The notes beneath the pieces were generated by a model, which was not told the origin of the DNA, did not search any database, and saw only the letters and a list, made by a program, of their open reading frames with translations. The position numbers and the translations under genes are program-made. From a virus, in the IMG/VR virus record IMGVR_UViG_3300018476_000017, positions 1 through 45,160 of that record: a stretch of DNA of 45,160 nucleotides; one strand, written 5' to 3'. Positions 969-29,068 of the stretch are shown one piece after another; positions within the stretch are counted from its first letter, which is position 1, and the number at the start of each line of letters is the position of its first letter.

Positions 969-1106
969 TCAACTCTTGACGATGACGTAGTGCCCACCCT
1001 GCGAACGCACGATGGCCATTGCTGCCGACAGCGAGTCGACCGTTTGCTGGCTGCCCTCACGGGTGGTCACCAGGTACTTGCGGGTCTTGCCGCAGCCACA
1101 GGCCAT
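969..1106 (-). CDS. Small Cys-motif protein in the late operon
   Basis: A 45-residue protein, MACGCGKTRKYLVTTREG at the N-terminus and ending HYVIVKS. It has a CxC pair (C3, C5) followed by a short alpha/beta-like segment. Short CGCGK-type proteins occur between head and tail genes in actinophages, without a known function. The start ATG 1106 overlaps the stop of the MuF gene as ATGA, and the next gene starts 3 bases after its stop. The coupling on both sides is the main evidence that it is real. Confidence 0.7.
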   Translation of the reverse strand: MACGCGKTRKYLVTTREGSQQTVDSLSAAMAIVRSQGGHYVIVKS

Positions 1107-3520
1107 CAGACACCGACCTTCTCACGCAGGCGGGCAACGCGCTGCTCACGGATCGAAGCGGTGAGCGCTGCGGCACGTTCCGCCCGTTGGCGGGCCGCCA
1201 CTCGGCGCTCTTGCTCGTCCACCACACTGACGGCGATCACGCCGTAGTCGATGGCGTTGGGGTCGGCGGTGACGATGGCCGCCGCGGTCAGAGCCAGCAA
1301 CATCTCCGGGTCGGCGGCAGACGCTGCCAACTCCAGCCGCGGGATCGGGAACCCGGGAACATTGACGATCAGCGCGCCGACCAGTTCAAGCGTGCCGCCA
1401 ATGCGACGCCAGTCGCCAGAGGGGGCTCCGGCGCGTAGTGCATGGGCTTGCTCTTGGCTGATGCCGGGACGCTCGATGCCGTGGACCCAGATGCCGAACT
1501 CGTCCTCACCGGCGGCAACGTCGGCAACCACGGTGCCGGTGTCGTCGTAGTGGCGCACGGTCTCGGTGGGGCTGGCGTCGGCGGTGGCGTGGCCGGTGCC
1601 CGCAGTGATGTGACCCACCGGCACCGGGCCACCGGCGGTCATCACTTCGCCGGTGCGGAAGTACGCATAGTCATGCGCTGACTTGGGAGCGGTGACGCAG
1701 TTCTTCTCACCGAAGCCGACGTGGCAGGTGTCCCAGGTGGCCAGGTGGCCGCTGACTTCGTTGAAGTCGCCAGCGGCGCGCACCATCAGTGGTGTCGGCC
1801 CCTGCAACTGCGGGTCAAGGAACAGTTCGATCGGTGGCTCCATGTCATCCTCCATACAATCACATTGAGCGAAGGCCGCAGCGACCTCACGCAGTTGTTC
1901 GGTGTCGATGTCCAACGGCAAGCCGTCGAAGTAACCGGGGTCCGCCGCGGCGGCAACTCCCCCACGCCGACCGCGGCGGCCACCTTCTTGGCCAGGCCAC
2001 AGGTTGATGGCCACCTTGTGCAAGTTGGCGCACGTGCCGTCGAGGTACGCCGGATTCTTGATGTACTTGCGAAGTTGCTTGCGGCAGCGGTCGAAGTCGC
2101 CGGGCACGCCCCAGCGAATCTTGGCTGCGCCCTTGCCGCGCGTCCAGTAGGTGCGCAGCCGTTGGGTGTCACGGGGATGGGTCACCCAGCCGGGACCGTC
2201 GTGGGTGCCGGGTGCGGCGACCAAGTCGTCGGCGTCGGCCTTCAAGCTGTCGGGCACCTCGTCACCGAGCTTGGCGTACAGGCCGCGCAGCCGACTGCGA
2301 GCCTTGGCTTTCTGTTCGGCGGGGGCATTCACGCCGCCACGCGCTCCGGCCAGGGCAGCCGCAGCGGCGTGAACCCCTGCCCTGCTCACTGCTCCCGAGG
2401 GGGTGAGCACGGGGACCTTGTAGGTGCTCTTGGATTGCGGGTCGCCACCGGGCATGGTGATCAGGCAGGCCCGCCGCCACTGCTCGATGGTGTAGTCGCT
2501 CGATGAGAAATTGCTCCACGGTTCTTCGCTGACGGCCAGCAGGGTGTCGTCTTCCAGGGCGGCGGCCATCTCGGTGGGCGGCGGCGGGTCGCCGCTGCGG
2601 TCGATCTTCTCGCCTGCCCACCACAGCTGCACGCCGTCGACGCTGACCGAGTCGGGGGTCACGTCGGGGTGGGGCACGCCGTAGCCGAGCGTGACATGCG
2701 GGGTGAAGTGCGGATGGTCGCCCGCCGGGCGGGCCACTTCGGAGAGGCTGTCGTGCAGGGTGGCGAAGTTGGGATGCTCCAACAGGTAGGTCGTGGCTTG
2801 CGGGTCGTCGTCGCCCATGAACGCCTTGCCGGTGATCTTGGCGTCGAACGGCTCGACGGCGGTGTTGTTCAGCCAGGCGACCAGTGCCTCGCGCAGCTGC
2901 GGCGGCGCTTCGTCGGCGTGGCCGTAGTAGCCCAAGGTGACATGCAGTTGGTCCGGCGGGTCACCACCGGGCACAGCAACGCTGGCAGGGTCTGCCAGTG
3001 TCGCCACCGCTACGGCTCCCCGAGGCGGATCGGAGGCGGCAGTGACGACACCGGCCCCCACAGTCAATCCACAGCGGCAGTTGATCCACACCGCAGGCGG
3101 GCCGACCGGCTGCCCCGGATATTGCAGGGCAACGCCCCCGACCATGAAGGGCTTTCCGGCGGCGACCGTGACGCCCTCCATTGGCTCGTGTGTGTCTCGC
3201 ACACGATCATCGAGGCGGGTGTTCCAGGTGAACGTCGACCCCGGCGGGGCAGCGGCGATCACCGCGGCATTGGCGGCGGCGGTCTCCAGCCAGCCGACCA
3301 CCAAGTCGATGTCGCTGTTGGCGCGGGTTGCTTCGATGGCCGCGCTGAGCATCATCGTGTAGTCGCGCACGTCGTCCACGGTCAGTGTGTCGGCGCTGTC
3401 GTCGTCCACAATGCGGTCGTATTCGGCGGCGAACAGTTCTTCGGCAATGCGTTCCAACTCGGCGCTGCGTTCACTGGGCAGCAGGGCAAGGGCGGCTTCG
3501 ACGTCGGAGCGGGTGCTCAT
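1106..3520 (-). CDS. MuF-like minor head protein fused to a 2H phosphoesterase and a protease-like C-terminal region
   Basis: 804 residues from ATG 3520, which overlaps the portal stop as ATGA. Residues 1-155 match the phage Mu F family: RLDDRVRDTHEPMEG, a YPG turn and the terminal NCRC (147-150). Residues about 185-305 hold two HxT motifs, HVTLGYYG (H193) and HVTLGY (H275), the signature of 2H phosphoesterases (LigT / 2'-5' RNA ligase superfamily). About 340-500 contains a Ser/Lys-rich region and the actinophage block KGAAKIRWGVPGDFDRC. About 540-800 includes HLATWDTCHVGFGEK and GHITAGTGHATAD, found in actinophage capsid maturation protease-like proteins. Expected to sit in the head near the portal. 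The enzymatic domain in a virion protein is unusual. Confidence 0.85.
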   Translation of the reverse strand: MSTRSDVEAALALLPSERSAELERIAEELFAAEYDRIVDDDSADTLTVDDVRDYTMMLSAAIEATRANSDIDLVVGWLETAAANAAVIAAAPPGSTFTWNTRLDDRVRDTHEPMEGVTVAAGKPFMVGGVALQYPGQPVGPPAVWINCRCGLTVGAGVVTAASDPPRGAVAVATLADPASVAVPGGDPPDQLHVTLGYYGHADEAPPQLREALVAWLNNTAVEPFDAKITGKAFMGDDDPQATTYLLEHPNFATLHDSLSEVARPAGDHPHFTPHVTLGYGVPHPDVTPDSVSVDGVQLWWAGEKIDRSGDPPPPTEMAAALEDDTLLAVSEEPWSNFSSSDYTIEQWRRACLITMPGGDPQSKSTYKVPVLTPSGAVSRAGVHAAAAALAGARGGVNAPAEQKAKARSRLRGLYAKLGDEVPDSLKADADDLVAAPGTHDGPGWVTHPRDTQRLRTYWTRGKGAAKIRWGVPGDFDRCRKQLRKYIKNPAYLDGTCANLHKVAINLWPGQEGGRRGRRGGVAAAADPGYFDGLPLDIDTEQLREVAAAFAQCDCMEDDMEPPIELFLDPQLQGPTPLMVRAAGDFNEVSGHLATWDTCHVGFGEKNCVTAPKSAHDYAYFRTGEVMTAGGPVPVGHITAGTGHATADASPTETVRHYDDTGTVVADVAAGEDEFGIWVHGIERPGISQEQAHALRAGAPSGDWRRIGGTLELVGALIVNVPGFPIPRLELAASAADPEMLLALTAAAIVTADPNAIDYGVIAVSVVDEQERRVAARQRAERAAALTASIREQRVARLREKVGV

Positions 3521-5307
3521 GGGACAGCCTCCAGGGCGCGCGGCATGGTTGCTGCCAGCAATGCAGAAAGCACCGTTGCCGAATGCGGGCGTTGCGATTC
3601 CAACAGGCCACGGACGTAGAAGTCGAGTGTCTCGATCACCGACTCGACACTGCCGGTGTAGCTGGCCAGCACCGCAGGCGCGCAGGCCCAGGCTCCCGCC
3701 AACAGGCTGGACGTGTCGCCGTTGAGGGTGCGATACACGTCGACGGTGGCCATCGACTTGGCGTCGTACTTGGGGTGGGCGTTCATCAGCTTGTTGCCTG
3801 CACGCTCCAGCGCCCGGTACACCAGCACGTCGCACGCTGCGGCCAAGCCGACCTGTTCGGACTTGGCGTGGTGGCTCGGCTCGTTCTGGTCGGGCGGGTT
3901 GCGCCGCTCCAGCGCCGGGGTCACGTCGGTGCGTAGGTGGTCGGGCGGCAGCTGCGCAGGCTGGACGCTGATCGTGCCCAGGTCGGTGCCCAGCAACTTC
4001 AGCGCCGCTTCGGTCATCTCCGGTGTGGTCGAGCCGACAGCGATCTTGCGCAGCAGCCACATCTTCTGTTCGGCGGTGAGCGGTGCGTCTTCCGGTTGGA
4101 AGCCGGTCTCGCGGCGCAGGGCCACGCCGCTGAGCTCGTTGCGGTCGTACAACTCGATGGCCTCTTGGCTGCGGTTGGGGCGCAGGCGGATGCCGCTGGT
4201 GTCAGCGATCACGAAGTAGTCGCCCACTTCGTCGTCGGGCACCAAGCCCTTCAGCGACGGTTGCAGGTATTGCTCGGTCAGGGCGTAGGCCAGGGTTGCC
4301 AGCTTCGGTTCCAGATGGGCCTTGACTGCCGACTCCTCAGAGAGCCATGCGTTCCAGTGGTTGGCGTCGGCCACGCCCAGCAGCACTTCCGGGGGGACGT
4401 CCATGCCCAGGGCAAGCCGCTTGATGGCGGCATCGCGCATGACGACGACCTTGTCGTCCAACTCGCTCCAGAACTTGAGATGCTCTTGCTTGCCCAGCGC
4501 TTCGGTGGGGACCATCGCCACAATCGGGACCAGCGCGCTGGGGTCGGCACGGTCGCCAATCGGGGTCATCATCGACTCACCGAGAATGGCCATGAACCTG
4601 CTGGCCGGGCTGGCGTTGGGGTCCATGCCTTCGGGCACGGGGAAGTCGATGTCGCTGGACATGAACAAGATGCCAGCACCCGCCAAGCGGCTGGCGATCT
4701 GCGCCGACACGTGCATGTCGTAGCCGGTGATCTGCGCCAGCGTCGACAGGTTGGGGCGCACCGGGCTGTCGGGGCGGGTCGGGTCTTGCGGGTTGGGCAT
4801 CCACACCCTGATCACCAGGTCTTGCGGGGTCAGCGTGATCGGCCCGGCCTCGGTGCCGAAGTCGGCCTGCAACACCCCGCCGGGCAGCTGGGTGACCTTG
4901 TTGTAGGCCAGCGTTTCCCAGGCGTCACCCTTGGCCCGGTTGACGATGTATTCGTCACCGGCGATGGTGGTGTGCACGCCGAACAGTTGCAGCATCTGGC
5001 TCTGCCCTTGCGGCCCGCCGTACAGGGCGTCCATGGCTTCGGTGGCGGGGCTGTCGCCACCACTGATCGGCACCAGCAGTCGCCCTTCACGCTTGGCGGC
5101 AACCAGCGTGGCGCGGCTCAACACGTTGCCGATCCACGTTGCTACATAGCGAAGCTCACCAACGTTCTCCCAGAATCGCCACGCTTCGCCTTGCCAGTTC
5201 TCCGGTCGTCCCGCCATGTTGCGGCTGCTGTTCGGCAGCCTGACGGCGGAGGCCACGAAGCCCGCCGGAGCGACGGGCGCGGGCTGCGGTTGACGTACCT
5301 TGGCCAT
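3517..5307 (-). CDS. Portal protein
   Basis: 596 residues, a normal length for an actinophage portal, placed between the terminase and the MuF gene as usual. It has the family's alpha/beta core: WQGEAWRFWENVGELRYVATWIGN near the N-terminus (read here in parts), a central SSDIDFPVPEG segment, and the conserved LGMDVPPEVLLGVADANHWNAW stretch around the stem and wing. The dodecameric portal ring is the DNA entry and exit channel and binds the terminase. It begins 15 bases after the DUF1360-like gene and is ATGA-coupled to the MuF gene. Confidence 0.9.
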   Translation of the reverse strand: MAKVRQPQPAPVAPAGFVASAVRLPNSSRNMAGRPENWQGEAWRFWENVGELRYVATWIGNVLSRATLVAAKREGRLLVPISGGDSPATEAMDALYGGPQGQSQMLQLFGVHTTIAGDEYIVNRAKGDAWETLAYNKVTQLPGGVLQADFGTEAGPITLTPQDLVIRVWMPNPQDPTRPDSPVRPNLSTLAQITGYDMHVSAQIASRLAGAGILFMSSDIDFPVPEGMDPNASPASRFMAILGESMMTPIGDRADPSALVPIVAMVPTEALGKQEHLKFWSELDDKVVVMRDAAIKRLALGMDVPPEVLLGVADANHWNAWLSEESAVKAHLEPKLATLAYALTEQYLQPSLKGLVPDDEVGDYFVIADTSGIRLRPNRSQEAIELYDRNELSGVALRRETGFQPEDAPLTAEQKMWLLRKIAVGSTTPEMTEAALKLLGTDLGTISVQPAQLPPDHLRTDVTPALERRNPPDQNEPSHHAKSEQVGLAAACDVLVYRALERAGNKLMNAHPKYDAKSMATVDVYRTLNGDTSSLLAGAWACAPAVLASYTGSVESVIETLDFYVRGLLESQRPHSATVLSALLAATMPRALEAVP

Positions 5308-15750: not shown

Positions 15751-15817
15751 ACGGACGGGGGTGCATCGCTAGCACCTTCGCCCACTGCCCAAGTCGGGCA
15801 CAACGAAAGGAACCAAC
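15751..15817 (+). promoter_or_regulatory. Hairpin/SD cassette 10
   Basis: GGTGC/GCACC, CGCCCACT, TGCCC/GGGCA, then ACAACGAAAGGAACC and ATG 15818. Confidence 0.8.
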
Positions 15818-16300
15818 ATGACCAACATCATCGACAGCCTCCCCCCGGACGCGCCCCACTGGTACGACAGCGAGCAGTCGATCGTGTATACGACCGACCA
15901 ATCGATGATCGTCAACCTTCGCAATCGCCTGGCGGCAGCGGAGACCGATCACCGGCAGGCGGTTGTCAACGCACGTCGTCTGTCTGCTCGTTGCGAAGCG
16001 ATGCAGGCCGACTTCAAGACCATCGAGCGGCGGCTCAACAGCGAGGCGAACAGCCGCAGCTGGTGCAGCGAGTACGACTCGATCAGTGCGGACATCAACC
16101 GCGAGTTGAGCACGTTCGAGTTCAGCCCGCGCAAGCGAGTCACGCAGGTCGAGTACGTGGTGCGCGTCGACGTGACCTACCCGCAGGACGGGGACTTCCC
16201 CGACGTGCGGAACGCCATCGAGAACGAGCTTGCCGACCTCGGCGGGCGCTGGGACGAAGACGTCGCAGAGGTGAGCATCGCCAACGTGTTCGCACGGTGA
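15818..16300 (+). CDS. Coiled-coil protein, paralogue of the gene at 25364
   Basis: 160 residues. Residues about 30-90 are heptad-like (NLRNRLAAAETDHRQAVVNA, CEAMQADFKTIERRLNSEAN). RSWCSEYDSISADINRELS follows and then a beta-rich C-terminus (VEYVVRVDVTYPQ). The gene at 25364 has the same order with REWCDEYDSFVHSLNTQLS and FTVTVGVTAP. Similar proteins occur in other actinophages with no proven role. Confidence 0.75.
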   Translation: MTNIIDSLPPDAPHWYDSEQSIVYTTDQSMIVNLRNRLAAAETDHRQAVVNARRLSARCEAMQADFKTIERRLNSEANSRSWCSEYDSISADINRELSTFEFSPRKRVTQVEYVVRVDVTYPQDGDFPDVRNAIENELADLGGRWDEDVAEVSIANVFAR

Positions 16301-21950: not shown

Positions 21951-22880
21951 CTAGGACACGGCCTTCCAGAACTCACCGCCGGTCCAGGTGTGCTTGCTGT
22001 CCCCGAAGGGAAGCTCGCCCACACGCACGCAGTTGAACAAGCCAGCTATGTCGCCGGGCTGCTCAAAGTCTTGGCCCTTGGCCGCGGCTGCGGCACGATG
22101 CGCGGCCACGGCGCGGTCCACTTCGGGTGAACCCGGCCCGGCCCACGTGACGTAGAGCGCCTGGCCATCGTCGGTGGTCATTGCGATGAACTGAGCATCG
22201 CTGTCGCTGAGGATGAGCAGTCGTACTTGCACGTCGTCGCCTCCTGGCGGTGGTGGTGTTGAGCCTGCGCGGCGGGCGGCTTCGGCTCGCATGTCGTCGC
22301 CGGACCACGTGCCGCTCGACGTGGTGGGCCTGGGATGCCACGGACCCTGCACGGCTTCGGCCGTGGCGGGGTCGATCTTCCTGGACGGTGCCCACTCCGC
22401 GTGGCCTGCCAGGTCGGTTGGCTGCAATCCGTAGGCCGCAGCGAGTGCGTTGTTGATGGCGAAGTACGCATCGATCTGCACCTGCGGCCAGGCTTCACCT
22501 ACGCCGGTGTTCACTGCTTCGATGCCGATGGCGTGACTGTTCATGCTGTCCTCGGGCACGGTGCCGCGGCTCATGCCCAGCGGACCACCTGCACCATTCG
22601 TGTTGGTGGCACCCCCTGCACAGACGATGACATCACCGGCACGACCAAGCACCAGGTTGCACACCGGGGCGACGTCGCTGCCATAGCTGGCGTAGTTGGC
22701 GACGCTCGCCGTCGAAGCGTTGGGCGCGCTGGCTGCATGGTGCCACATGATTGTCCACGGACGGTTGCCGTCGTATCCCCCGCTGGACCGAGCGCGGTAC
22801 TGCCAGTCGTCCTGTTCGGTCACGTCGAGGCCAGCCCGGCGCAGCACGTCGGCCAGGTCGGTCAGGTAGCGGTTGCCCAT
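21951..22880 (-). CDS. Endolysin, N-acetylmuramoyl-L-alanine amidase (Amidase_2)
   Basis: 309 residues from ATG 22880 (MGNRYLTDLADVLR), overlapping the upstream stop as ATGA. The amidase_2 core covers about 10-190: WHHAASAP (H47), NSHAIGIEAVNTG, GHAEWAP (H160) and KIDP (D170) supply the zinc and catalytic residues. It cleaves the amide bond between MurNAc and L-Ala in the host wall. A Pro-rich linker (about 208-215) leads to a C-terminal region of about 90 residues, probably for binding. Confidence 0.9.
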   Translation of the reverse strand: MGNRYLTDLADVLRRAGLDVTEQDDWQYRARSSGGYDGNRPWTIMWHHAASAPNASTASVANYASYGSDVAPVCNLVLGRAGDVIVCAGGATNTNGAGGPLGMSRGTVPEDSMNSHAIGIEAVNTGVGEAWPQVQIDAYFAINNALAAAYGLQPTDLAGHAEWAPSRKIDPATAEAVQGPWHPRPTTSSGTWSGDDMRAEAARRAGSTPPPPGGDDVQVRLLILSDSDAQFIAMTTDDGQALYVTWAGPGSPEVDRAVAAHRAAAAAKGQDFEQPGDIAGLFNCVRVGELPFGDSKHTWTGGEFWKAVS

Positions 22881-23086
22881 CAGAGGTCGCCGTCTTCGAC
22901 ACGGTTGCGGATGAAGGCGATGTGCGCCAGTAGGCGGAGCAACCTGCCGCTGCGGTCGGGTCGGTCGCCGGTGAACAGGTCGTTGACGCGGATGCTGATG
23001 TTGTCGAGCAAGTCGACCACAGGGTCCGACGCGTCCCACCCATCCTCGGGGTCGGCATCATCGAACGGCGTGCCTGTGTCGCTCAT
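22880..23086 (-). CDS. Small acidic protein upstream of the endolysin
   Basis: 68 residues, acidic at the start (MSDTGTPFDDADPEDGWDAS) with a helical C-terminus (RSGRLLRLLAHIAFIRNRVE). ATGA-coupled to the endolysin and 3-base overlap with the 30-residue membrane gene before it. No family recognised; a lysis accessory role is inferred from location. Confidence 0.65.
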   Translation of the reverse strand: MSDTGTPFDDADPEDGWDASDPVVDLLDNISIRVNDLFTGDRPDRSGRLLRLLAHIAFIRNRVEDGDL

Positions 23087-23088
23087 GG

Positions 23089-23181
23089 CTACACCCTGTG
23101 CCGGACGATGAGCCAGATCACGACAACCAAGAGGATGACGATGATCAAGCCAGTGCTGATGACGATCGCTTCACCAATCAT
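23089..23181 (-). CDS. 30-residue single-span membrane protein, holin candidate
   Basis: A very short gene, MIGEAIVISTGLIIVILLVV then VIWLIVRHRV. Residues 5-26 are a pure hydrophobic span with a basic C-terminus. AAGG lies upstream of ATG 23181 at a longer spacing than usual. It heads the lysis cassette, so a small holin or regulator is plausible. Confidence rests on the hydrophobic pattern and position. Confidence 0.55.
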   Translation of the reverse strand: MIGEAIVISTGLIIVILLVVVIWLIVRHRV

Positions 23182-23263
23182 GCCCGGACCTTACATCGGA
23201 TGGAGCGGGGTCGCACCCGCCCACCCACTCCCGCAACAAGGCGGGTCAACGAAAGGAAACAGG
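23182..23263 (+). promoter_or_regulatory. Hairpin/SD cassette 16 between divergent genes
   Basis: GCGGG/CCCGC, CCACCCACT, CCCGC/GCGGG, then TCAACGAAAGGAAAC and ATG 23264. The 82 bases between the lysis cassette and the plus-strand gene should also hold the lysis promoter, but no clear -10/-35 was seen. Confidence 0.75.
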
Positions 23264-23932
23264 ATGCCAACCAAGACCAAGGCAGAAACGAATGGCGAGG
23301 CGACTGCGCCACCGCCGGAGGTTGCCTCCATCAGTCTCAGCCGGATCGAGACTGAGCGGTTGGAGGTTCCGATCATGGGCACCACGCCCCTGATCTGCCA
23401 CCGCTTCTCGGAGAAGGCCAAGCGCATGATGCTCGACAACATGCAGGGCCGCAAGAATCCTCGAGAAATCAAGGATCCCCAGGCCGAGTACGAAGCCGCG
23501 TTCTACAAGTTCGATGACGGGCGCTTCGGCCACCCGACATTGGCCTTCAAGGACGCCACCGTTGGCGGCGCTCGCTTCTACGGCAGCAGCGTGACGATGA
23601 CCGGCTTGCGCCAGTCGTTGTTCTTCGTCGGCACACAGAACCAAGTCGATGGCATGGCCTTGACGGAAATCTGTGGGGAGCCGGTCATGCGGGAAGATGT
23701 CGTGCGGGTCAACCGCGGCGGCACCGACCTGCGTTACCGACCGCAGTTCAACGAGTGGACTGCAACGCTCACCATCGTCTACGTGAAGGCAATGCTGACC
23801 CGCGACAGCGTGCTGTCGCTGATCGAAGCTGGTGGAATGGGCGTGGGCGTAGGCGAATGGAGAGTCGAGAAAAGCGGCGACTTCGGTACCTATTGCATCA
23901 ATCCCGACCGAGAGGTGACCATCCTCGGATGA
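23264..23932 (+). CDS. Conserved phage protein (function unknown)
   Basis: 222 residues. The series VPIMGTTPLICHRFSEKAKR, GRKNPREIKDPQAEYEAAFY, MREDVVRVNRGGTDLRYRP and GGMGVGVGEWRVEKSGDFGT is typical of a widespread actinophage and prophage family of this length. Its biochemical role is not known to me. It is ATGA-coupled to the next gene, a pair that usually occurs together in early or replication regions. Confidence 0.8.
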   Translation: MPTKTKAETNGEATAPPPEVASISLSRIETERLEVPIMGTTPLICHRFSEKAKRMMLDNMQGRKNPREIKDPQAEYEAAFYKFDDGRFGHPTLAFKDATVGGARFYGSSVTMTGLRQSLFFVGTQNQVDGMALTEICGEPVMREDVVRVNRGGTDLRYRPQFNEWTATLTIVYVKAMLTRDSVLSLIEAGGMGVGVGEWRVEKSGDFGTYCINPDREVTILG

Positions 23933-24333
23933 GCACACTCAAGGATGAGCTACTCGCCATCCGTGCGGCGCGGGGGTTACTCACCCCCGCGACCGTGTTG
24001 GATGCAGCACGACCACCCGAGTCACCGTTGCACTCTCGCTTTGAGTGGGACGATGGCATCGCCGCGGAGAAGTATCGACTGGCCCAAGCCAGCGATCTGA
24101 TCCGCAGCGTGAGGGTCAACTTCACCACCGCGACGGGCGTCGAGTCTGTCCGTCAGTTCGTGGTATCAGGACCATCCACCTACTCCCCGATCGAGGAGGT
24201 GGCGCAAGACCCGATCAGTCGGGAGCTCTTGCTCCGCCAATTTGAGCGGGACTGGAAGACCTTCCAGGCCAGGTACTCACACCTGGCCGAGTTCCTTGAG
24301 AGCATCAGGGAGGTGTTGGCGGAAGCCAGCTGA
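23929..24333 (+). CDS. Conserved phage protein, partner of the preceding gene
   Basis: 134 residues from ATG 23929. RAARGLLTPATVLDAARPPE, SPLHSRFEWDDGIAAEKYRL and AQASDLIRSVRVNFT match the protein that usually follows the previous family (WDDxxAAxxYRxxQAxxLIR). DNA binding has been suggested for such proteins but is not evident from motifs. Last gene before the gene-free tract. Confidence 0.8.
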   Translation: MSTLKDELLAIRAARGLLTPATVLDAARPPESPLHSRFEWDDGIAAEKYRLAQASDLIRSVRVNFTTATGVESVRQFVVSGPSTYSPIEEVAQDPISRELLLRQFERDWKTFQARYSHLAEFLESIREVLAEAS

Positions 24334-25309
24334 ACGGCAATGGACATGGCAGGCGAGGCGGTACATGGCGCGTCCTCGCACGGTGAGGCATTGGCATGGG
24401 GGGCGAGGCAGGCGGGGCGTCGGCAATACCTGGATCGGCACAGCGTGTCAGTGCCCGGCCGGGCATCGCTCGACCCGGCAGGCTCGGCATGGAATGGCAG
24501 GGCGAGACTTGGATAGGCAGGTCCGGGCAGGCTCGGCCGTTGTTGGCTTGGCCGGTCACGTTCTGCAAGTCATGTCATTGGCGTGGCAGGCGGGGCTGGG
24601 CATGGCCCGACATGACGAGGAAGGCATGGCAGGCTGGGCAACGCAGTGCTCGGCTGGTCGCGGTCGGCGTGACTGGGCTGGCTTGGCTTGTCCTTCAGGG
24701 CAAGTCAGTGCACCACACTGCTCGACTCGGCTCGGCAGGCACGGTTGGCTCGGCTTGGCGAGGATGGCGTGTCCCCGCGCGGCTTGGCAGGCAAGGCTCG
24801 GCCAGTTCGTCGTGGTGTGTCAAGTCATGGAATTGATGGCGCGGTGGTCGTGGCAGGCAGGGCAGGGCGACCTTCCGCTTGGCTCGGCCAGGCTAGGCGA
24901 GTAGGCATGGCAGGCTTGGCACGCGCGGCGGGGCATGTCATCGCTCGGCACGGCCCTTCATGGCAGGCCGCGCTTGGCAGGTCTCGTGAGGCAAGTCATG
25001 GCTGGGCAGGCGCTGCGGGTCGACACGCGTCGGGGTTGGGCATGGACGTACTTGGTAGGGCGAGGCAGGCAGGGATTGGCTCGGCGGTGCAAGGCGGGGC
25101 ATGGCAGGCAGGGCTAGTCGCCGCTCGGTATGGCTCGGCCTCTATGGGGCCGGGCAGGGCAGGCGAGGCACGGCAAGGCAGACGGGTCTAGGAATGGCTT
25201 GATGCGGCAAGGCAGGCATGGCAAGGACTGGGCATCGGCATTCAGTGCTGGTCCCGGCAACGCTCGGCTGGGCGCGTCGACGGCACGGCAGGCATGGGGC
25301 GCGTGGGGG
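24334..25309. other. Gene-free, G-rich low-complexity tract (about 980 bases)
   Basis: The plus strand is packed with short words ending in GGC, such as GGCAGGC, GCTCGGC, CATGGC, GGCATGGCAGGC and CAAGTCATG, repeated irregularly every 4-6 bases. G is far more frequent than C. All plus-strand frames are long open frames because stop codons are rare, but each is a mix of Arg, Gly, Ala and Trp with no recognisable domain, and none has a good SD. Most likely non-coding. It could be a replication or packaging site, or a transcribed RNA. Confidence 0.7.
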
Positions 25310-25363
25310 TCAGACCCCGCGCGTCCACTGTGGGCATCCGCCCACTCACACGAAAGGAACCAC
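25310..25363 (+). promoter_or_regulatory. Hairpin/SD cassette 17
   Basis: GGGGTC/GACCCC with a 1-base gap, GTGGGC/GCCCAC with loop ATCC, then CACACGAAAGGAACC and ATG 25364. Confidence 0.75.
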
Positions 25364-25879
25364 ATGGACGACACACCAAACGACACGTCGATCGTCATCC
25401 CGCCGATCTTCAGCGACGAACAGCTGCTGGGGTTCAAGCAGGCGAGGATCGATGACCTGGAGCAGATGGTCTCCGACAAGGACGAGCAGCTGAATCGCAC
25501 GCGGGAAGTTCTGCACCAACTCAACATCACCCACGAGGAGGTCCTTGGCAGGCTCACCGCAACGGAGTCGGCACGGCAGCGGCTGGCCGAAGATTGCGCG
25601 ACCATCGCCGCTGAGTTGCTGTCGGAAGCGGAGCGCCGTGAATGGTGCGACGAATACGACAGCTTCGTGCACAGTCTCAACACACAGCTGAGCCAGCGCT
25701 GGTTCAAGGCGTGCCCCAGGGAATCGACGCACACCTTCACCGTGACGGTGGGCGTGACTGCACCATCGGAGTCCTACGAGGACATCTGCGAGCAGTTGAA
25801 GGAGTACCTGGAAGGCGCAGCGGAAGGAGTGAGCAACAGCGACGCATTCGACATCAGTGTCAGCGTCGTTCCGCGGTGA
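25364..25879 (+). CDS. Coiled-coil protein, paralogue of the gene at 15818
   Basis: 171 residues. A long coiled coil covers about 20-90 (ARIDDLEQMVSDKDEQLNRT, REVLHQLNITHEEVLGRLTA). REWCDEYDSFVHSLNTQLSQ and the C-terminal FTVTVGVTAPSE correspond to the same elements in the 15818 product. Its stop overlaps the next start as GTGA. Role unknown; duplication within one genome is clear from the motif order. Confidence 0.75.
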   Translation: MDDTPNDTSIVIPPIFSDEQLLGFKQARIDDLEQMVSDKDEQLNRTREVLHQLNITHEEVLGRLTATESARQRLAEDCATIAAELLSEAERREWCDEYDSFVHSLNTQLSQRWFKACPRESTHTFTVTVGVTAPSESYEDICEQLKEYLEGAAEGVSNSDAFDISVSVVPR

Positions 25880-26265
25880 CCGAGTTCCGCCGGGGGGACT
25901 ACATCACCGTGCAGGAGGCAGCGCACATTCTGCAGATCACCGAGCAGTCGGTGCATCAGTTGATGTCTCGCGGTCACATACGCAACTGGCGTGAACACAA
26001 CAGGTTCCCCCGGCCACTGCGCGCCGACGTCGAAGCGTGGGCCGCGCCCGACACACGGCTGACCGTTGCCGAAGTAGCAGAGCGATTGGGCGTAAGCGAG
26101 CAAGCGGTTCGCAACTACATCAAGAAGGGCTACCTGGTGGGTGCCCAACGGGGACGGCGGGGCGAGTTCCGCTTCACCGAGGATGCGTTGAAGCGCTTCA
26201 TTCCACCGGCCACCGGCAAGCGGACCAGGCAGCAGCCCATCCGCCGAATGGACGGCAAGCGATAA
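25876..26265 (+). CDS. Protein with two tandem MerR/excisionase-type helix-turn-helix domains
   Basis: 129 residues from GTG 25876. Domain 1 (about 8-50): YITVQEAAHILQITEQSVHQ, LMSRGHIRNWREHN. Domain 2 (about 60-108): LTVAEVAERLGVSEQAVRNY, IKKGYLVGAQRGRRGEFRFT. Both have the (I/L)TVxEAAxxLxVxxxxVxxLI pattern of excisionase-like HTH proteins. A basic tail (KRTRQQPIRRMDGKR) follows. A DNA-binding regulator or architectural protein that contacts two half-sites is likely. Confidence 0.8.
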   Translation: MTEFRRGDYITVQEAAHILQITEQSVHQLMSRGHIRNWREHNRFPRPLRADVEAWAAPDTRLTVAEVAERLGVSEQAVRNYIKKGYLVGAQRGRRGEFRFTEDALKRFIPPATGKRTRQQPIRRMDGKR

Positions 26266-26343
26266 CGGACGGGTGTGGGTCATACCGCACCCGCCCACTC
26301 ACCCAACACGGGGTGATACAAGCAACGAAAGGAACCGAACCAA
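26266..26343 (+). promoter_or_regulatory. Hairpin/SD cassette 18
   Basis: GGGTGTGG/CCGCACCC (one G-T pair), GCCCACT, TCACCC/GGGTGA, then AGCAACGAAAGGAACC and ATG 26344. Confidence 0.8.
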
Positions 26344-27831
26344 ATGCCAAAGAAGAAAGAGGAACTCGATCCCGATTCCCCCGAGGGCATTCGCCAGCAG
26401 CAAATGCAGCTGCTCGCGGAAGTCGGCGGGAAGCTGTTGGGCGAGGAAGACATCACCTTCTCCGGCACGAAGTTCGTACTGCCCGCGAAGCTGGACCTGG
26501 AGCAAGCAATTGAGTTCCTGGCACAGCGTCAAGAGGATGAAGAAACCGTCAACCGATTCCAGAAGGAGTTCAAGTACCGCCCGCTCGATGGAGCGCGCGC
26601 AACGATGAACGCCATCAAGGAGACGTTCGGTTTCACCTTGGGCAAGACGATCTACTCGTTCTTCGGAAACACGCCACCCACCTTCATCGACTGCCGCTTC
26701 GGCCCAGGCCGGAACGACACCGAGCAGGTGCCGTGGGGTGCGATGCAGATTCCTGGCTTCCGCAACACGGTCGTGTACCTGGGTAACACCAACCACGCCG
26801 AACTCGGGAGCATCTTCCACATTCGCGTCGAAGCGCCACGCAAGTATCGGTGGCACATCGAAGGTCTGTTCAGGTTGATCGAGAAGCATCTCTCTGAGAA
26901 CTCGATCTACAAGGGCAAGGCAATCGACGGCGCGGAGGAACCCAACTTCCTGGACCCGTCATCGGTCAACCCGGCCGATGTCGTCTACACCCAGGAAGTC
27001 GTCGCGCAGTTGGAGGCCAACGTGTGGTCGCCAATCAAGCACGCCGACATGCTGACCTCACTCGGTCAGCCGGGCAAGCGGACCGTCTTGTTTGAGGGTC
27101 CGTATGGCACGGGCAAGTCGCTCGCAGCGTTGCTCACCGCACAGGTGGCCATCGCCAACGGGTGGACGTTCTTGCTGTGCCGCCCTGGGAAGGACGACCT
27201 GAACGTGACCATGCAGACGGCGCGCATGTACCAGCCCGCCGTCGTGTTCTTCGAAGACCTCGACACGGTTGCCCAGCCGGGCAGCGGTGACGACGTGTCG
27301 AAGATCTTGGACATGTTCGACGGCATCACCACCAAGGGGCTGCAGATGCTCTTGGTGCTCACCACCAACCATGCGGAGCGCATCCACAAGGGCATGGTGA
27401 GGCCGGGTCGTTTGGACGCGGTGATCCACGTTGGAGAGATGGACCGTGCTGGCGTAGAGACACTGACCCGCCGGGTCATTGGCGATTCGCTGCACACGGA
27501 CATCGACTTCGACAAGGTGGCCGAGGCGATGGATGGCTACATGCCAGCCTTCGTCAAGGAGGCGCTGGACCGGGCCATCCGGTACAGCGTCAGTCGCAAC
27601 AACGGGCACGTCGGCCTGATCGATACCGACGCCCTGGTGCTGGCAGCGCATGGCCTGCGCGACCAGCTGCGCCTGATGTCGGAGGCATCCGATGTCGAGC
27701 GCGAGCCAACCCTCGACCGTGTGTTCATGCGCACGATCGAGAAGGTGACCGCCGAAGTTGTCCACGGTGCAGCCGTGCTCGACTACGACGGCGACGAGCG
27801 GTTCCACCTGGGACCGCGCGAAGACAGCTAA
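26344..27831 (+). CDS. AAA+ ATPase
   Basis: 495 residues. The ATPase module covers about 230-430: Walker A GPYGTGKS (252-259), Walker B VVFFEDLD (300-307), sensor 1 LTTNHAERIHKGM and the RPGRLD box typical of classical AAA proteins (FtsH, Vps4 or CDC48 type). Residues 1-220 are a phage-specific N-terminal domain. Classical AAA proteins remodel or unfold protein complexes with ATP. The substrate here is unknown; context (tandem HTH protein, then the modification genes) suggests a role on phage or host nucleoprotein. Confidence 0.85.
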   Translation: MPKKKEELDPDSPEGIRQQQMQLLAEVGGKLLGEEDITFSGTKFVLPAKLDLEQAIEFLAQRQEDEETVNRFQKEFKYRPLDGARATMNAIKETFGFTLGKTIYSFFGNTPPTFIDCRFGPGRNDTEQVPWGAMQIPGFRNTVVYLGNTNHAELGSIFHIRVEAPRKYRWHIEGLFRLIEKHLSENSIYKGKAIDGAEEPNFLDPSSVNPADVVYTQEVVAQLEANVWSPIKHADMLTSLGQPGKRTVLFEGPYGTGKSLAALLTAQVAIANGWTFLLCRPGKDDLNVTMQTARMYQPAVVFFEDLDTVAQPGSGDDVSKILDMFDGITTKGLQMLLVLTTNHAERIHKGMVRPGRLDAVIHVGEMDRAGVETLTRRVIGDSLHTDIDFDKVAEAMDGYMPAFVKEALDRAIRYSVSRNNGHVGLIDTDALVLAAHGLRDQLRLMSEASDVEREPTLDRVFMRTIEKVTAEVVHGAAVLDYDGDERFHLGPREDS

Positions 27832-27893: not shown

Positions 27894-28499
27894 ATGGACA
27901 AGGATCCATACATCGAAACTGCGCAGGCTCTGGCTAACAATTTCGGCCAGGGCGCAGAGGAAATCTACGAACAAGAAGGCAGCGTCGAGCCGGTGCTGCT
28001 GCTGCTGGACGACGATGGGTTGGGCCTGCTGATGCACCCCAGCCGCCTGATGCGTGATCACCCCGGCGAGGCAAGCTCGCTGATCATCGCGGTGGTTGGC
28101 AAGATGCTGCCGGTGCGGTTCATCGGCTTCATTGTCGAGTCGTTTATGACGTCAATGCCCAAGGATGACCCACGTGCGCAAACCATCGAGCGTGGCCAGC
28201 TGACCGAGTGGGCCGAGACCGACCCCGACGTGCGCACGGCCATCTGCACCACAGTGTGGGACGTGAAGTCTCGCGCCGACAGCTACTGCCGACTGGCCAC
28301 CGTGAAGGGTGACCCACGCCAGTGCGAGTGGGACATCGAACAGATCGAAGGCCCACCAGAGGGGTTCATAGACGACCTGTTCACCAAGGCGTTCGCCAAT
28401 GCGCCGCTGCTGGAACACCGCCCGCCCGAGGAAGTCGCCATTGCGCTGATGAACACCGGGCTGGTGACGGGCGCGATGCTGATAGAGGTCCAGCAATGA
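27894..28499 (+). CDS. Hypothetical protein downstream of the AAA+ ATPase
   Basis: 201 residues, MDKDPYIETAQALANNFGQG then an alpha/beta region (EPVLLLLDDDGLGLLMHPSR, LIIAVVGKMLPVRFIGFIVE). Acidic. No family recognised. ATGA-coupled to the next gene. Place after the AAA+ gene suggests a partner, but no motif confirms that. Confidence 0.7.
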   Translation: MDKDPYIETAQALANNFGQGAEEIYEQEGSVEPVLLLLDDDGLGLLMHPSRLMRDHPGEASSLIIAVVGKMLPVRFIGFIVESFMTSMPKDDPRAQTIERGQLTEWAETDPDVRTAICTTVWDVKSRADSYCRLATVKGDPRQCEWDIEQIEGPPEGFIDDLFTKAFANAPLLEHRPPEEVAIALMNTGLVTGAMLIEVQQ

Positions 28500-28747
28500 T
28501 CGAAGACGACGGCGAACACCTGGCCATGTTCGTGATCTACGAGAACCCGACTGACGTTCCGGTCCAGGGATTTGTGGTACGACGGTGGGTCATGTGTGCA
28601 CATGACAACGGACACCCACCAGTGCCCGATCCGTTGGTGTGCGTGGGGCAGACCCTGGAAGCGGCGCGCAGCCAGATTCCGCCGGGGCTGTTCTGCTTGC
28701 AGCGCCAGGAGAACGACGACCCGTGCATACGGGAGGTGTGGCTTTGA
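28496..28747 (+). CDS. Hypothetical protein
   Basis: 83 residues, EHLAMFVIYENPTDVPVQGF then VVRRWVMCAHDN. This resembles small phage proteins with a FVIYxxPxDyP start and one late Cys pair. TGATG overlap with the next gene. Function unknown. Confidence 0.7.
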   Translation: MIEDDGEHLAMFVIYENPTDVPVQGFVVRRWVMCAHDNGHPPVPDPLVCVGQTLEAARSQIPPGLFCLQRQENDDPCIREVWL

Positions 28748-28932
28748 TGAAGATCACCCTTGCCGACCTGTTCCGCCTGTCGCGCATCACCAATCGGCAG
28801 GTGGTGGTCGAGACCGTGGGGCCGGGCACGCATCGCATCCACCACGACGGGTGGATTTACACCATGCCCGAGGATGAGGATGAACTGCTCGACCGGATCA
28901 CGGCGAGGCTCGACGGTGGCGGAGGGGGTTAG
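28747..28932 (+). CDS. Small hypothetical protein
   Basis: 61 residues, MKITLADLFRLSRITNRQVV then VETVGPGTHRIHHDGWIYTM. Ends in a Gly run. ATG 28747 overlaps the preceding stop. No family recognised. Confidence 0.6.
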   Translation: MKITLADLFRLSRITNRQVVVETVGPGTHRIHHDGWIYTMPEDEDELLDRITARLDGGGGG

Positions 28933-29068
28933 CCAGGGCGAGTTCGATGCGCTGCTTGCCGCACACCGAGCGACAGCCGCTGAAGTGGAGGCGCTGAAGC
29001 TGCGTCTGGCCTACGTCGAGGGCTGGGTGCGCGGCGTACAGGAGGCGCTGCGCAAGGATGAGACATGA
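28916..29068 (+). CDS. Very small coiled-coil protein
   Basis: 50 residues from GTG 28916, helical throughout (GEFDALLAAHRATAAEVEAL, KLRLAYVEGWVRGVQEALRK). It overlaps the genes on both sides (17 and 4 bases). A small oligomerisation or adaptor protein; it immediately precedes the radical SAM gene. Confidence 0.6.
   Translation: MAEGVSQGEFDALLAAHRATAAEVEALKLRLAYVEGWVRGVQEALRKDET

What the first reader, a model, noticed from the sequence alone, without database searches (positions are those of the whole stretch)
24334..25309. About 1 kb gene-free G-rich tract built from irregular GGC-ending words
The tract has a heavy G over C bias on the plus strand and hundreds of 4-6 base units such as GGCAG, GCTCG and GGCATG, with longer repeats (GGCATGGCAGGC, CAAGTCATG). 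It lies between ordinary genes in a genome with almost no other non-coding DNA. Retention of 1 kb suggests a function: an origin, a packaging site, a G-quadruplex or R-loop-forming region, a non-coding RNA or a recombination substrate.
Basis: partly seen in the sequence, partly recalled or inferred. Interest (0 to 1): 0.78.

Follow-up and report, generated by a model that had tools for sequence, protein, structure and literature searches.

The report
Phage-encoded guide RNA array (VIPR)
The gene-free stretch is an array of guide RNAs written in five-letter words (GGC plus two variable letters) beside the gene for its partner protein; it belongs to VIPR, a CRISPR-like system that viruses use against rival viruses and that was first described in a 2026 preprint.

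Summary
Window 24334-25310 is a G-rich, gene-free tract of quasi-tandem pentamers GGC+NN, punctuated by the 4-mer GGCA before GGC. It is a vrRNA array of a VIPR system (Viral Interference Programmable Repeat; preprint PMC13142463). The gene ending at its 5' edge (23929-24333, phrog_15946) is the presumed accessory gene (vap). The gene before that (23264-23932, phrog_4652) is a Vipr RAMP protein: its profile hits the solved SUSP1 Vipr chain (E=4.8e-12), and its AlphaFold model matches Cas7/Csm3 (Z=12.1). Of 48 interior arrays in viral contigs found by DNA pattern alone, 45 have vipr and 41 both genes; 131 of 131 arrays lie on the vipr strand. One window guide (24352-24406), read by the published 1-nt skip rule, matches the window's own vipr gene at 19 of 22 bases in the wobble register. 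None of 5000 shuffles reached 18, and skips of 0, 2 or 3 gave 12-13. The mismatches suggest that the real target is a rival phage's vipr. Transcription and binding are inferred. The VIPR type could not be assigned (supplement not readable); the partner gene differs from SUSP1's vap1. Origin, packaging-site and G-quadruplex readings are not supported.

The parts
24334..25310 (+). vrRNA array: about 17 guide-length blocks of GGC+NN pentamers separated by 4-mers, mostly GGCA|GGC
   Evidence: lag-5 identity 0.458 vs 0.297 +/- 0.015 shuffled; 17 GGCAGGC delimiters; same strand as vipr, as in 131 of 131 arrays checked
23264..23932 (+). vipr gene (phrog_4652): RAMP/Cas7-like RNA-binding protein, 222 aa from the ATG at 23264
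   Evidence: profile hits PDB 36pp_D 'SUSP1 Vipr protein' E=4.8e-12; model pLDDT 95 matches Csm3, Z 12.1; HMM recovers SUSP1 Vipr at 5e-19
23929..24333 (+). presumed vap (VIPR accessory protein), phrog_15946, 134 aa, helical with a beta hairpin
   Evidence: phrog_15946 E=1.9e-26; co-occurs with vipr and arrays; confident model, no PDB fold match
24352..24406 (+). guide block with a recognised target: NN = GA GG AT GC CT AC GA AT CA GG GA
   Evidence: 19/22 match under the 1-nt skip to 23648-23680; 0 of 5000 order-shuffles reach 18
23648..23680 (+). site in the window's own vipr gene matched by that guide (codons D-G-M-A-L-T-E-I-C-G-E); the real target is probably a rival's vipr
25297..25345 (+). 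two perfect hairpins straight after the last unit (stems 25297-25308/25315-25326 and 25330-25335/25340-25345), probable end of the transcript
   Evidence: fold -39.2 kcal/mol, z=-3.4 against shuffles

Best explanation
The tract is a VIPR guide array. It is co-directional with vipr and vap in an operon. Its RNA supplies vrRNAs in which GGY triplets are a scaffold bound by successive Vipr (Cas7-like) subunits, and the NN pairs together spell the target, read as NN-x-NN-x with one skipped base. The skip usually falls on the codon wobble position. The ribonucleoprotein would bind matching double-stranded DNA of rival phages or prophages and repress transcription there. At least one guide here appears aimed at the vipr gene of a related phage. 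Shown here: the lattice, the two genes, the fold, the strand rule, fast guide turnover in sibling phages, and one target match. Inferred from the preprint: transcription, processing, Vipr binding and repression.
For: Vipr identity by profile and fold. The association is independent of how the loci were found: 23/23 loci found by the vap homologue carry arrays; of 48 interior arrays found by DNA pattern 45 have vipr and 41 both; isolate phages UmaThurman, Ecliptus, Pipp, Saal and Cy-LDV1 likewise. Strand agreement 131/131. Over 533 blocks of 7-17 units the GGY positions carry 0.41, 0.59 and 1.05 bits of entropy and the two N positions 1.93 and 1.99 of 2, as published for vrRNAs. Guide 24352-24406 matches vipr 19/22 only with the 1-nt skip. 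Another array's guide (L014) matches the G-loop codons of L016's vipr 19/20 and its own vipr less well; L023's guide matches L011 20/20. In F1 mycobacteriophages vipr-vap is 96.8-99.9% identical while most guides differ.
Against: No RNA or binding data for this phage. The window's scaffold is more degenerate (G 75%, G 77%, C 79%) than in the pooled arrays (94%, 90%, 77% C plus 16% T). Apart from the guide at 24352, the eight other window blocks tested had no match above background in the window itself, and exact scans of IMG/VR with three window guides found nothing. Across all guides and all loci the 1-nt skip did not beat an order-reversed control; only hits inside vipr genes did, mostly owing to one guide. 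No repeated 3' tail like SUSP1's was seen.
Confidence: 0.95

Rival explanations
1. A decaying or non-functional VIPR array: the locus descends from a VIPR system but the degenerate scaffold no longer works.
For: Scaffold positions are 75-79% consensus here against 90-94% for the two G positions in the pooled arrays; several blocks are out of the 5k+4 register.
Against: vipr and vap are intact and fold confidently; one guide still reads as 11 codons of a vipr gene; SUSP1's working vrRNAs also contain off-consensus units (sequence).
Confidence: 0.12
2. A protein-binding DNA array (replication origin iterons, packaging site, or decoy) whose protein reads GGC every five bases.
For: Regular 5-nt lattice, strand bias, intergenic position.
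Against: The NN positions are near maximal entropy yet form target-like codon strings; the partner protein is a Cas7-like RNA-binding fold; the strand always matches vipr; genome position varies, e.g. between tail chaperone and tape measure in Ecliptus.
Confidence: 0.03
3. G-quadruplex or R-loop region acting in replication or transcription.
For: Strong G over C skew on the presumed non-template strand.
Against: No strict four-run G3 motif; the sequence rule is specific (GGY plus NN plus GGCA punctuation) rather than simply G-rich.
Confidence: 0.02
4. Eroded coding sequence: one of the overlapping frames once encoded a protein.
For: Some frames stay open for 146-220 codons.
Against: No Pfam or PHROG match for any; period 5 with 4-nt slips breaks every frame; GenBank genes called inside such arrays (UmaThurman gp40, Pipp gp43) are array sequence.
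Confidence: 0.01

Closest known systems
VIPR of Escherichia phage SUSP1 (type II; PMC13142463)
   Same: Homologous Vipr protein (profile E 5e-12 and 5e-19), GGY/NN pentamer vrRNAs in the intergenic gaps of a vipr-vap pair, 1-nt skip reading.
   Different: SUSP1 has four separate vrRNAs of about 100 nt, each with a 3' tail, and uses mostly GGT (sequence). Here there is one continuous GGC array of about 17 blocks with 4-nt punctuation and no repeated tail. The partner gene is phrog_15946, whose profile finds nothing in SUSP1.
VIPR loci of Gordonia phages UmaThurman, Pipp, Ecliptus, ODay and F1 mycobacteriophages (Saal, Quico, Donkeykong, Gorge), unannotated as such in GenBank
   Same: Same Vipr family (47-58% identical), same phrog_15946 partner; the same GGC array with GGCAGGC punctuation where the DNA was read (all but ODay).
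   Different: The array lies between vipr and vap, or before vipr, rather than after vap.
Cas7/Csm3 subunits of type III CRISPR effectors
   Same: RAMP fold of the protein (Z 12.1, rmsd 3.5 A over 159 residues).
   Different: About 9% identity; no CRISPR repeats, no spacers copied as contiguous sequence.

Membership tests
VIPR system | Vipr RAMP protein (RRM core, G-loop, thumb) | tested here: met
   Profile match to PDB 36pp_D Vipr, E=4.8e-12; AlphaFold model matches Csm3; glycine-rich loop G191, G195, G197, R200, G208 conserved
VIPR system | vrRNA made of alternating GGY/NN pentamers, 9-16 per guide | tested here: met
   Lattice in the window; in 533 pooled blocks of 7-17 units GGY is conserved and NN is not. 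The sequence criterion is met; an RNA was not tested
VIPR system | Target read as NN with one skipped base | tested here: met
   Guide 24352-24406: 19/22 with skip 1, 12-13 with skip 0, 2 or 3 in vipr; no shuffle reached 18. One guide only; exact IMG/VR scans of three guides were empty
VIPR system | Adjacent vap gene | tested here: met
   phrog_15946 gene directly downstream of vipr and present with 41 of 48 interior arrays. That this gene is one of vap1-vap6 could not be checked
VIPR system | vrRNA is transcribed and binds Vipr | not testable with these tools
   needs RNA sequencing or pull-down
VIPR type II (SUSP1 clade) | vap1 homologue | tested here: not met
   phrog_15946 profile finds no match in SUSP1, E up to 10
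VIPR type II (SUSP1 clade) | Each vrRNA followed by an invariable structured 3' tail | tested here: not met
   Blocks follow each other directly; hairpins only at the array end
Other VIPR types (staggered arrays, hammerhead-interspersed arrays) | Array architecture and vap of each type | tested here: inconclusive
   No Rfam match, hammerhead included, at 22500-26500; type definitions are in a supplement that could not be read
CRISPR array | Identical repeats of about 28-37 nt with unique spacers, cas1/cas2 | tested here: not met
   No such repeats; only short words and loosely similar stretches recur

The most novel reading that the evidence does not exclude
A compact VIPR architecture: one tail-less transcript carrying about 17 guides punctuated by a 4-nt GGCA unit that marks guide boundaries, partnered with the phrog_15946 protein, and carrying at least one guide that disables the vipr gene of competing phages, i.e. 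guide arrays that target each other's effectors among actinobacterial phages.
Probability: 0.45. Interest if true: 0.65.

Novelty: new member of a known kind. Interest (0 to 1): 0.5.

Why it matters
It extends a very recently described RNA-guided system, presented as ancestral to CRISPR, to an actinophage-like genome with a long multi-guide array, and ties it to phages that already grow in teaching laboratories (F1 mycobacteriophages, Gordonia phages), where the guide code and its targets can be tested at once. It also explains unannotated 'gene-free' kilobases and some spurious gene calls in many phage genomes.

Tried and rejected
BLAST of the tract against phages: no match, because NN changes faster than the genes. 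The downstream coiled-coil gene has no IMG/VR relatives and is not part of the system. Rfam: nothing. Targets: exact scans of IMG/VR with three window guides, with a relaxed version of the vipr-directed guide and with a guide conserved in F1 phages were all empty. Up to two mismatches in 397 genomes of the order of Mycobacterium gave two hits that were not vipr and are chance; the F1 guide in 248 Mycobacterium genomes gave none. F1 and Gordonia guides against five F1 and four other phage stretches gave nothing above background. Dataset-wide counts for the 1-nt skip equal those of an order-reversed control, so codon bias alone explains most weak matches. I first considered 5-nt footprints of RecT-type annealing proteins and R-loop priming; both were dropped once the PDB match to Vipr appeared. 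Some GGC-rich repeats found by pattern (L194, L203, L219) have no vipr in the held stretch; I set them aside as look-alikes. VIPR-type assignment failed for lack of the supplement.

Full report
What is in the sequence. The tract 24334-25310 is as described: 413 G against 256 C on the plus strand and the highest skew of the window. Its order is a lattice: identity at lag 5 is 0.458, against 0.297 +/- 0.015 in dinucleotide shuffles and at most 0.307 anywhere else in the window. Broken at GGC, it reads as GGC+NN pentamers with the 4-mer GGCA before GGC (17 GGCAGGC) every several pentamers. Frames inside it match nothing.

Relatives. The tract itself has no BLAST match, but the gene that ends at its edge, 23929-24333 (phrog_15946), does. 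All 23 IMG/VR loci found through that gene contain a tract with the same 5-nt periodicity, next to the gene in nearly all. The isolate phages UmaThurman, Ecliptus, Pipp, Saal and Cyanophage Cy-LDV1 have it too, beside the same gene and the gene before it (phrog_4652). Searching by the DNA pattern alone gave the same two genes again: of 48 arrays at least 1.5 kb from either end of the stretch held, 45 have phrog_4652 and 41 have both. The G-rich strand is the gene strand in 131 of 131 cases. Loci from bacterial genomes reach Aureimonas, Bradyrhizobium, Atopobiaceae, Selenomonadales, Verrucomicrobia and Dokdonella.

Identity of the proteins. A profile of 90 phrog_4652 sequences finds one solved protein with a meaningful score, PDB 36pp chain D, 'SUSP1 Vipr protein', E=4.8e-12. 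The AlphaFold model (pLDDT 95) matches Csm3/Cas7 subunits (Foldseek E about 1e-5; VIA Z 12.1, rmsd 3.5 A over 159 residues). In the SUSP1 genome the reverse search gives 5e-19 for the Vipr gene at 28474-29061. The phrog_15946 protein has a confident model without a PDB match.

The known system. The preprint PMC13142463 (bioRxiv 2026.04.26.720920) describes VIPR: Vipr, an accessory vap, and vrRNAs of 9-16 YNNGG repeats whose NN pairs are read with one skipped base, mostly at codon wobble positions, to repress rival phages; it names seven types. The window has the protein, the repeat rule and an adjacent partner gene. The 533 guide blocks pooled from vipr loci have 7-17 units; the GGY positions hold 0.41, 0.59 and 1.05 bits of entropy and the NN positions 1.93 and 1.99.

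Test of the code. The window guide at 24352-24406 (GA GG AT GC CT AC GA AT CA GG GA) reads as D/E-G-I/M-A-L-T-D/E-I/M-H/Q-G-D/E. The window's own Vipr has D-G-M-A-L-T-E-I-C-G-E at 23648-23680: 19 of 22 NN bases match with skip 1, but 12-13 with skip 0, 2 or 3. No order-shuffle of the guide reached 18 against vipr (5000) or 19 against the whole window (600). One mismatch is a synonymous leucine base and two lie in a Cys versus His/Gln codon, so I infer a related phage's vipr as the real target. L014's guide matches the G-loop codons of L016's vipr 19/20 and its own vipr less well; L023's guide matches a gene of L011 20/20. In general, however, counts over all loci do not beat an order-reversed control except inside vipr genes (18 or more of 20: 22 against 3 to 4), and that excess comes mostly from one guide. 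Exact scans of IMG/VR with three window guides were empty.

Evolution. Among F1 mycobacteriophages vipr-vap DNA is 96.8-99.9% identical, while most guide blocks are replaced and one is kept in all four. Two F1 phages, Che8 and Fruitloop, show no array in the stretches read.

Array end. Two perfect hairpins follow the last unit (25297-25345, z=-3.4). Palindromic sequence also follows the array in L010, L019 and L023 (read from the sequences), which looks like a transcript end rather than a tail on each guide.

What remains open. No RNA evidence exists for this genome. The scaffold of this array is looser than in its relatives. The VIPR type is unassigned: phrog_15946 is not SUSP1's vap1, and there is no tail on each guide.

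Noticed in passing
L269 4662-4985 (UmaThurman gp40), L271 4739-5008 (Pipp gp43), L282 16871-17257 (Donkeykong gp48): Annotated hypothetical genes that lie wholly or largely inside VIPR arrays and are probably spurious gene calls.
   Followed up: partly
L283 17004-18221 (Gorge gp54): vipr and vap are annotated as one frame; the region aligns to Saal over 1050 against 1049 bases, so a one-base difference probably breaks vipr there. Intact copies exist in sibling phages.
   Followed up: no
window 25364-25879 and 15773-16297: The orphan coiled-coil gene downstream of the array has a paralogue earlier in the same phage and no relatives found in IMG/VR.
   Followed up: no
L270 4676-5100 (Ecliptus): In Ecliptus the vipr-array-vap module sits with two HTH genes between the tail assembly chaperone and the tape measure gene, an odd place that suggests it moves as a cassette.
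   Followed up: no
window 1106-4060 (-): A 984-codon frame with portal, head-morphogenesis and RNA-ligase-like segments by PHROGs; looks like a fused structural gene.
   Followed up: no
L272 about 3999-4053 and the same block in L281, L282, L283: One guide block is kept in all four F1 phages while the others turn over; its target is unknown.
   Followed up: partly
L193 601-1125 and 1651-2150 (Bacterium HR16): Two clean GGC+NN arrays in a thermophile bin without a vipr recognised in the stretch held; a possible more distant Vipr.
   Followed up: no
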